Part shown: one piece after another, positions 29,056-33,452 of the stretch
Layout: every line of letters starts with the position of its first letter
How positions within the stretch are numbered: the first letter of the stretch is position 1
Virus record (IMG/VR): IMGVR_UViG_3300047323_000138
Location: 1-64,000 of that record
From: a virus
Length of the DNA: 64,000 bases
Direction: 5' to 3' (one strand)
Made by a program: the position numbers and the translations under genes
Notes under the pieces: generated by a model
The model's database searches: none
Told to the model about the DNA's origin: nothing
Seen by the model: the letters and a program-made list of their open reading frames with translations, nothing else

Positions 29056-29460
29056 TTATTCGTCTTCATCAGGTTCAACGAACACCAACGACAAACGAGG
29101 TTTCATCTCGGACTTAATCTGTTCCGGGGTTTGTTCTTCCTCTTCAGGATCACGCTTCCCTTCAGCACGGGCTTTGAAGTTTGTAATCTCATCGCTGCTA
29201 GCTGCTTTTTCAACGCTAACAATCGAGTTGATCACCCACTTTGCACTTGCAACGGATTCAGAGTTAACAGTTTCGTTGTTAAGACTCTTATCAATCAAAG
29301 CTAGAGCAATATCTTCTCGTGTACGAAGCTTATCAGCCAACTCACGAAGTTTACTCTTTTTGATACGAACCTTACTATTTCCTTTCAAGTTTTGATTAGA
29401 GCGTTCCGCCCCGAATCGTGTACTTGGGCTAGGGTTTGGATTTGTAATCTTCTTGGTCAT
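29056..29460 (-). CDS. Terminase small subunit (probable)
   Basis: 134 residues. The N-terminus is KKITNPNPSPSTRFG and a basic stretch (KVRIKKSKLRELADKLR) leads to a helical centre; the C-terminus is acidic (DPEEEEQTPEQ, PDEDE). This is the usual build of a small terminase with a DNA-binding front, helical core and acidic tail. It is not next to the large subunit. Its first 22 codons have a diverged twin 950 bases upstream, which suggests the gene was split by the HNH element between them. Confidence 0.55.
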   Translation of the reverse strand: MTKKITNPNPSPSTRFGAERSNQNLKGNSKVRIKKSKLRELADKLRTREDIALALIDKSLNNETVNSESVASAKWVINSIVSVEKAASSDEITNFKARAEGKRDPEEEEQTPEQIKSEMKPRLSLVFVEPDEDE

Positions 29461-32984: not shown

Positions 32985-33440
32985 TCTTAAGCGAACTTAC
33001 AGGCAATGCCTTGCAATATTCATAATGAAGAAGAACGCTTAAGAAATGACCCTGTACTAAGCCTATACCGTAAGGAGAGGTACGTTACACGCTATCAAGG
33101 TCAGAAGACTAATTCACAGGAGAGGGAATGAATAGTCTTAATGCTGTCTGAGGAAGAGGAGAGAAAGACAGCTTTTGAAGATAATGCTTTATGTAGAATT
33201 TAAGTTCTTATCGCATTATCGGTGAAACTGGAATTAGTGCTCTGCTCACCCTCCCAACCGACATTCACTTTTGGAGGCTACGCGACCTAATAAGGTTTCG
33301 ACTTATCACAAAGTCTCATCAGGCGTGTTAAATAAGTGCGAATGCTGGATACCTACTTGCAGAGCGGTGGTATCGTACGCTCGTAAATTAATGCTGGTGT
33401 TGTTTATCTCGTCTTTATCACGAGGTGGCAGAATCCAGCA
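32985..33440 (-). ncRNA. Long structured leader of the tail spike transcript
   Basis: The 502-base gap 32,951-33,452 has no gene but is packed with perfect inverted repeats: 32985-32993/33036-33044 (9 bp), 33105-33111/33133-33139 (7 bp), 33143-33149/33166-33172 (7 bp), 33180-33187/33213-33220 (8 bp), 33348-33353/33369-33374 (6 bp), 33343-33350/33433-33440 (8 bp) and 33408-33412/33420-33424 (5 bp). Two of these are mutually exclusive because they share 33348-33350. A hammerhead ribozyme lies in the middle. The RNA would precede the tail spike on a leftward transcript. Confidence 0.6.
33266..33338 (-). ncRNA. Hammerhead self-cleaving ribozyme
   Basis: On the minus strand every core position of the hammerhead consensus is present. 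CTGATGA (33322-33316) is followed by stem II GACTT/AAGTC (33315-33311 with 33304-33300, loop TGTGAT), GAAA (33299-33296), stem III ACCT/AGGT (33296-33293 with 33288-33285, loop TATT) and C at 33284. Cleavage is expected after this GTC, between 33284 and 33283. Stem I pairs ACGC (33326-33323) with GCGT (33283-33280) and, beyond an internal loop, CACTT (33338-33334) with AAGTG (33270-33266). Open stem I makes it type I. Confidence 0.9.
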
Positions 33441-33452
33441 ACTGCGCATTCT

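What the first reader, a model, noticed from the sequence alone, without database searches (positions are those of the whole stretch)
33266..33338. Complete hammerhead ribozyme in the leader of the tail spike gene
The sequence shows all core positions of the hammerhead family on the minus strand: CTGATGA, a G-C closed stem II, GAAA, a closed stem III, and a GTC cleavage triplet. Stem I pairs over 4 bp, then 5 bp after an internal loop. By consensus the cut falls between 33284 and 33283. Hammerheads have been reported in some phage genomes, but their role is unclear. Here it lies between a small early-type operon and a late tail spike gene. I infer it may separate the two transcripts, set mRNA stability, or define a new 5' end for the spike message.
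Basis: partly seen in the sequence, partly recalled or inferred. Interest (0 to 1): 0.92.

Follow-up and report, generated by a model that had tools for sequence, protein, structure and literature searches.

The report
Hammerhead ribozyme inside phage double-pseudoknot RNA
The sequence is a real hammerhead-type self-cutting RNA, but it is only the inner part of a larger, previously uncatalogued folded RNA that unrelated bacterial viruses carry beside their tRNA clusters and at the start of their late genes, so the cutting probably processes those transcripts rather than serving the tail-spike gene in particular.

Summary
The hammerhead is real and at the stated place (minus strand, 33338-33266; predicted cut between C33284 and G33283). 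It is the inner part of a ~150-nt RNA (33386-33236). Around it, hairpin P1, whose loop pairs far downstream (PK1), and a second pseudoknot (P3/P4) form a nested double pseudoknot. Across 48 homologues 93% of cells pair, and 34 of 39 pairs change on both sides, including every PK1 and P4 pair. All 44 hammerhead-bearing homologues keep CUGANGA, GAAA and a non-G at the cut; four others lack the hammerhead but keep the scaffold. I found no degenerate intermediate. No Rfam 15 family matches above threshold. Homologues lie in unrelated phages: Klebsiella, Escherichia, Pseudomonas and Acinetobacter. One setting is phage tRNA or noncoding-RNA clusters. The other is late leaders of lambdoid prophages between antiterminator Q and lysis genes; one has near-lambda flanks, including the lambda pR' region. 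The tail-spike link is incidental: in one close relative two tRNAs intervene, in another there is no spike. Best reading: a self-nicking processing or insulating element for untranslated phage leaders. Activity and function are inferred, not shown.

The parts
33236..33386 (-). whole conserved element (hammerhead plus nested double pseudoknot)
   Evidence: model R1, 114.8 bits, E 2e-26 (the window is one of the 33 rows of the model); 48 homologues aligned
33369..33374 (-). P1 5' strand GATACC (pairs 33353-33348)
   Evidence: 5 of 6 pairs change on both sides, 98% of cells paired
33359..33365 (-). PK1 5' strand GCTCTGC, in the P1 loop (pairs 33245-33239)
   Evidence: 7 of 7 pairs change on both sides, counted on an alignment made with a model without PK1
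33354..33358 (-). conserved unpaired AAGTA between PK1 and P1
   Evidence: G and T invariant and the A's at 90% or more in A1
33348..33353 (-). P1 3' strand GGTATC
33338..33345 (-). P3 5' strand GCATTCGC (distal stem I; pairs 33268-33261)
   Evidence: 8 of 8 pairs change on both sides
33323..33326 (-). stem I 5' strand ACGC
33316..33322 (-). hammerhead core CTGATGA
   Evidence: CTGANGA in 44 of 44 hammerhead-bearing homologues
33311..33315 (-). stem II 5' strand GACTT
33300..33304 (-). stem II 3' strand AAGTC
33296..33299 (-). core GAAA
   Evidence: 44 of 44
33293..33296 (-). stem III 5' strand ACCT
33285..33288 (-). stem III 3' strand AGGT
33284..33284 (-). H17 (C); predicted cleavage between 33284 and 33283
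   Evidence: C 26, U 10, A 8, G 0 in homologues
33280..33283 (-). stem I 3' strand GCGT
33273..33277 (-). P4 5' strand CCTCC (pairs 33254-33250), crosses P3
   Evidence: 6 of 6 family pairs change on both sides
33261..33268 (-). P3 3' strand GTGAATGT
33250..33254 (-). P4 3' strand GGAGG
33246..33249 (-). conserved GTGA joining P4 and PK1
   Evidence: 30-32 of 33 at each position in A1
33239..33245 (-). PK1 3' strand GCAGAGC
33392..33446 (-). upstream hairpin module; loop TGCTGG (33440-33435) can pair with CCAGCA (33397-33392); outside the conserved element, membership uncertain
   Evidence: read from sequence; in L079 the second strand is CCAGCG, so CCAGC/GCTGG stays and the end pair becomes G-U
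33221..33231 (-). CCAGTTTCACC, likely scar of a lost tRNA-Pro/tRNA-Leu pair
   Evidence: in L024 the same letters stand at and after the 3' end of tRNA-Leu

Best explanation
What it is: a type I hammerhead ribozyme carried as a module inside a ~150-nt phage RNA. The outer part is a nested double pseudoknot: hairpin P1 with its loop paired to the 3' end (PK1), enclosing the P3/P4 pseudoknot. The hammerhead sits in the P3-to-P4 connection. How it most likely works: the nascent RNA folds and the hammerhead cuts after C33284, leaving a 2',3'-cyclic phosphate upstream and a 5'-OH downstream. PK1 (7 bp) and P3 (8 bp) span the cut and clamp the halves, so the RNA is nicked in place. I infer that this makes a processing or insulating boundary at the start of, or inside, untranslated phage regions (tRNA and noncoding-RNA clusters, late leaders), giving both sides nuclease-resistant ends. 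Shown: the structure, by covariation; the intact core; the shared genomic contexts. Inferred: cleavage, clamping, and the purpose.
For: Covariation on 48 homologues: 93.4% of cells paired against 69% in shuffles and 37-40% in slid controls, 34 of 39 pairs with two-sided change. PK1 and P4, which the aligning model did not contain: 13 of 13 pairs with two-sided change, covariation 0.689 against 0.273 shuffled and 0.14-0.22 slid. Catalysis under selection: 44 of 44 intact cores, H17 never G. Scans that did not ask for the core found it either intact or wholly absent, never decayed. Context: element within a few to about 20 bases of tRNA genes in L001, L012, L024; scaffold without hammerhead inside a 30-tRNA array in L143; element downstream of antiterminator Q (PF03589) in L008, L009, L056, L063 and in an E. 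coli SZQ1 prophage between annotated Q and holin. In L009 the flanks are lambda-like (97.6% over 904 bases reaching the element), the element replacing DNA just before the terminator.
Against: No cleavage was measured. The window copy has a competing fold (CCUGAUGAG pairing with CUUAUUAGG); its hammerhead-compatible ensemble is 6.1 kcal/mol worse than the free one in a model without pseudoknots, the third worst of 44. In 27 of 44 homologues the 10.1-11.1 position is not a standard pair, though it is G-C in the window. Clamping the products argues against simple release of two RNAs. Scaffolds without a hammerhead show that cutting is dispensable in some phages. About half of the lineages have no tRNA nearby. 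No transcript data were available, and promoter-like sites near the element in the window are no more frequent than chance.
Confidence: 0.5

Rival explanations
1. Spike-specific control: the hammerhead sets the 5' end and stability of the tail-spike message.
For: In the window it lies about 290 bases upstream of the spike start on the same strand.
Against: In L024 two tRNAs intervene; in L079 no spike follows; none of the annotated homologue loci has a spike annotated next to the element.
Confidence: 0.08
2. The scaffold is a cis-acting antitermination RNA (like HK022 put or Bacillus EAR) that keeps RNA polymerase going through late leaders and untranslated tRNA arrays; the hammerhead then cuts the nascent chain, for example to deny Rho a continuous track.
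For: The two contexts, Q-controlled late leaders and untranslated tRNA/noncoding arrays, both need terminator resistance; several elements lie 10-30 bases from intrinsic terminators; the scaffold persists without the hammerhead.
Against: Lambdoid late operons already have Q; some elements lie before and some after the terminator; no sequence link to put or EAR was tested.
Confidence: 0.17
3. The scaffold is a trans-acting small RNA or decoy made from late leaders and tRNA clusters (as lambda 6S leader RNA or T4 rnaC/rnaD are stable RNAs of unclear role), with the hammerhead as a maturation step.
For: Terminator directly after the element in many prophages; conserved unpaired AAGUA and GUGA, kept in hammerhead-free members.
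Against: No homology to T4 rnaC/rnaD by model R1; the cut would split the RNA.
Confidence: 0.15
4. A ligand-controlled ribozyme: the outer pseudoknots bind a molecule and gate cleavage.
For: Conserved unpaired nucleotides in a pseudoknot scaffold; competing fold in the window.
Against: No consistent regulated gene next to it; hammerhead-free members have no evident ligand-controlled switch.
Confidence: 0.06
5. Hammerhead-like but inactive relic or chance match.
For: No Rfam gathering hit; competing fold in the window.
Against: 0 chance hits in 400 shuffled windows; 44 of 44 homologues intact; strong covariation.
Confidence: 0.04

Closest known systems
Hammerhead ribozyme, type I (Rfam RF02275 HH9, RF00163, RF00008)
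   Same: CUGANGA, GAAA, NUH, three stems, stem I open to the flanks
   Different: Stem I is interrupted by P4 and continued by P3 inside a nested double pseudoknot; 10.1-11.1 often unpaired in the family; best Rfam score among the sampled members 28.2 bits against a cut-off of 52
Hammerheads with stem I/II pseudoknot and phage/prophage hammerheads, including PaP3 (Perreault et al. 2011, PMC3088659)
   Same: Hammerheads in phages; helix-type tertiary constraints
   Different: There the pseudoknot brings stems I and II together; here the pseudoknots form an outer scaffold. The PaP3 genome has no match to this family
Theta (HDV-like) ribozymes next to phage tRNAs (PMC10879173)
   Same: Self-cleaving RNA adjacent to phage tRNA genes
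   Different: HDV fold and minimal size; here hammerhead core, large scaffold, also in late leaders
Lambda late leader (6S RNA) between pR' and tR'
   Same: L009 carries the element at this place, and other lambdoid prophages carry it downstream of Q
   Different: Lambda itself has no such element; the lambda leader is not known to cut itself (general knowledge)
T4 rnaC/rnaD stable RNAs in the tRNA cluster
   Same: Noncoding RNAs inside a phage tRNA cluster
   Different: No match to model R1 with filters off
Processive antitermination RNAs (HK022 put, Bacillus EAR)
   Same: Possible role and placement at long operons (from general knowledge)
   Different: Sequence and structure relation not tested

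Membership tests
Hammerhead ribozyme (fold class) | CUGANGA between stems I and II | tested here: met
   33322-33316; 44 of 44 homologues
Hammerhead ribozyme (fold class) | GAAA between stems II and III | tested here: met
   33299-33296; 44 of 44
Hammerhead ribozyme (fold class) | N-U-H at the cleavage site, H not G | tested here: met
   GUC; C 26, U 10, A 8, G 0
Hammerhead ribozyme (fold class) | Three helices around the core | tested here: met
   stems I 96%, II 82%, III 100% of cells paired, with two-sided changes in each
Hammerhead ribozyme (fold class) | Stem I-stem II tertiary contact | tested here: inconclusive
   P4 lies where loop II would dock, but no loop II partner could be assigned
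Hammerhead ribozyme (fold class) | Mg2+-dependent self-cleavage giving 5'-OH and 2',3'-cyclic phosphate | not testable with these tools
   needs in vitro transcription
Rfam hammerhead families as curated (RF00008, RF00163, RF02275, RF02276, RF02277) | Score at or above gathering threshold | tested here: not met
   window 22.7 against 48.5 for RF00008; L027 28.2 against 52 for RF02275
Double-pseudoknot hammerhead family defined here (model R1) | P1, PK1, P3, P4 with conserved AAGUA and GUGA | tested here: met
   114.8 bits (window included in the model); PK1 and P4 read in the window and counted in the family
Theta/HDV-like ribozymes | HDV nested double pseudoknot fold | tested here: not met
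   No Rfam HDV-like hit even at E 10; strand order differs
Lambda late leader RNA | Lies between Q/pR' and tR' | tested here: not met
   Window: no Q gene among the neighbours tested; met in L009
T4 rnaC/rnaD | Sequence-structure homology | tested here: not met
   No match above 5.2 bits over the T4 tRNA region

The most novel reading that the evidence does not exclude
A new class of phage regulatory RNA: a nested double-pseudoknot scaffold, used in lambdoid late leaders and in untranslated tRNA arrays, that acts on the transcribing polymerase or nascent chain (for example antitermination), with a hammerhead as an optional plug-in that nicks the tether while the halves stay clamped.
Probability: 0.2. 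Interest if true: 0.93.

Novelty: new variant of a known kind. Interest (0 to 1): 0.8.

Why it matters
Hammerheads were reported in phages and prophages in 2011 and their role was left open. Here one occurs with a conserved outer structure in recurring contexts, including a lambdoid leader whose flanks are nearly those of lambda. That lets the role be tested in lambda and E. coli with core-dead and scaffold mutants. A ribozyme whose own structure should clamp its two products is also unusual and suggests that the nick, not release, may be the function.

Tried and rejected
Rfam at gathering threshold for window and relatives: nothing but tRNAs. PaP3 (published phage hammerhead): not this family. 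T4 rnaC/rnaD: no match. Lambda: no match. 369 gammaproteobacterial genomes with R1: none, but that search had no positive control and scored few candidates per genome, so it shows little. E. coli collection with L009 plus flanks: only the terminator end matched; with L058 one prophage, SZQ1, matched. Plasmids: only a terminator-sized match. The genome-contig scan found two unrelated matches. Patterns gave many chance hits, filtered with R1 or by eye. Scaffold tree: hammerhead-free members fall in more than one place but support is weak (FastTree; the iqtree run failed), so the number of losses is not claimed. Literature: no description of this family found in the open-access library; closed papers and supplements were not seen.

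Full report
Observation. The minus strand at 33338-33266 holds a complete hammerhead core with the cut predicted between C33284 and G33283. A descriptor of the full motif finds only this site in the window and none in 400 first-order Markov copies. Rfam 15 gives no gathering-level match, and 22.7 bits to RF00008 when relaxed.

Larger element. A blastn search with the flanking DNA hit the same stretch in Klebsiella phage 05F01 and, with a looser limit, in 17 Klebsiella and 2 Escherichia phage records of several unrelated groups: Ackermannviridae (Taipeivirus), Schitoviridae, Stephanstirmvirinae and 46-kb phages. A query with the 05F01 copy added two Acinetobacter phages. The conserved unit is 33386-33236. 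Pattern scans of viral contigs added many more.

Structure. Helices read by a parser and placed on an alignment of 33 sequences gave 92.1% paired cells and 33 of 39 pairs with two-sided change. Model R1 was built from the nested part only: P1, P3, stems I, II and III. On 48 sequences aligned with R1, PK1 and P4, absent from the model, still show two-sided change in 13 of 13 pairs; the whole structure reaches 93.4%. The layout is P1-5', PK1-5', AAGUA, P1-3', P3-5', hammerhead, P4-5', P3-3', P4-3', GUGA, PK1-3'. P3 and P4 form one pseudoknot; P1 and PK1 form another that encloses it. Plain folding of L027 gives the hammerhead, P3 and PK1 together.

Selection on catalysis. All 44 hammerhead-bearing members keep CUGANGA and GAAA, and H17 is C, U or A, never G. 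Some of these were found with patterns that required the core, but scans that asked only for the scaffold found intact hammerheads or none. Four members (L061, L063, L127, L143) have the scaffold with the hammerhead cleanly absent. So the scaffold appears to have a use of its own, and the hammerhead, where present, is kept intact. An oddity is that position 10.1-11.1 is A.A, C.A or U.U in 27 of 44; in the window it is G-C.

Context. (a) tRNA and noncoding clusters: L001 directly after the last of 13 tRNAs, L012 just before three tRNAs, L143 inside a 30-tRNA array, L024 just before tRNA-Pro and tRNA-Leu, Pseudomonas phage 5371 with a tRNA-Thr 200 bases downstream. (b) Late leaders: downstream of antiterminator Q (PF03589) in L008, L009, L056 and L063; E. 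coli SZQ1 prophage with annotated Q, element, holin, endolysin, terminase. L009 matches lambda at 97.6% over 904 bases up to the element, including the lambda pR' region, and again beyond it; the element replaces lambda DNA just before the terminator. Promoter use there is inferred from knowledge of lambda. (c) About half of the lineages have neither a tRNA nor Q in the DNA held.

Window phage. Its portal protein is 47% identical to those of Pseudomonas phages of 84-99 kb. L024 shares the upstream gene and spike N-terminus but has two tRNAs between element and spike; in the window CCAGTTTCACC, which stands at the 3' end of tRNA-Leu in L024, is joined near the element, a likely deletion scar. 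In L079 the element precedes a relative of the window gene at 29056-29460 instead of a spike. The spike link is therefore incidental. The window copy may fold less readily than most.

Mechanism. PK1 and P3 span the cut, so the products should stay paired. I favour a processing or insulating boundary, with antitermination as the main rival; neither was tested. Confidence by layer: conserved hammerhead-containing RNA 0.97; cleaves 0.85 for the family and about 0.75 for this copy; processing or insulation as the role 0.5.

Limits. E-values from R1 are rough, the window is one of the model's own rows, and the bacterial genome search lacked a positive control. Literature was searched only in an open-access library, so 'not described before' means not found there and not in Rfam 15.

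Noticed in passing
L224 (lambda) 990 on; L005, L009, L012, L015, L016, L019, L021: A structured module after lambda tR' (CACAACAGGTAAG ... CTTTCCGTTGTG, with variable insert) recurs in lambdoid prophages and in noncoding regions of virulent Klebsiella phages, usually followed by hairpin GCGCAGGCTGATGCGC.
   Followed up: partly
L006, L012, L015, L016, L027, L039 near the element: Two hairpins with complementary loops (GCTGAT and ATCAGC), a possible kissing pair, before or around the element.
   Followed up: partly
L015:3797-7132: About 3.3 kb without annotated genes in Taipeivirus UPM 2146, with long inverted repeats and tRNA-like pieces; looks like a cluster of unknown structured RNAs.
   Followed up: no
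window 33175-32990, minus strand: Row of hairpins with UCUCC-type loops between element and spike, also in L024 and L079; read on the other strand the loops carry GGA as in CsrA-binding RNAs.
   Followed up: partly
L003, L040, L052, L053, L055, L099 downstream of PK1: Conserved UGACA followed by a hairpin with a GAAAGA loop directly after the element in divergent members.
   Followed up: no
L028:2409-2462: A compact type I hammerhead without the scaffold in another viral contig.
   Followed up: no
G014:C1:25758-25897: A second, weak match (33.4 bits) in the record of L032, the only record with two.
   Followed up: no
window 33221-33231: Likely scar of a lost two-tRNA cassette, by comparison with L024.
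   Followed up: yes
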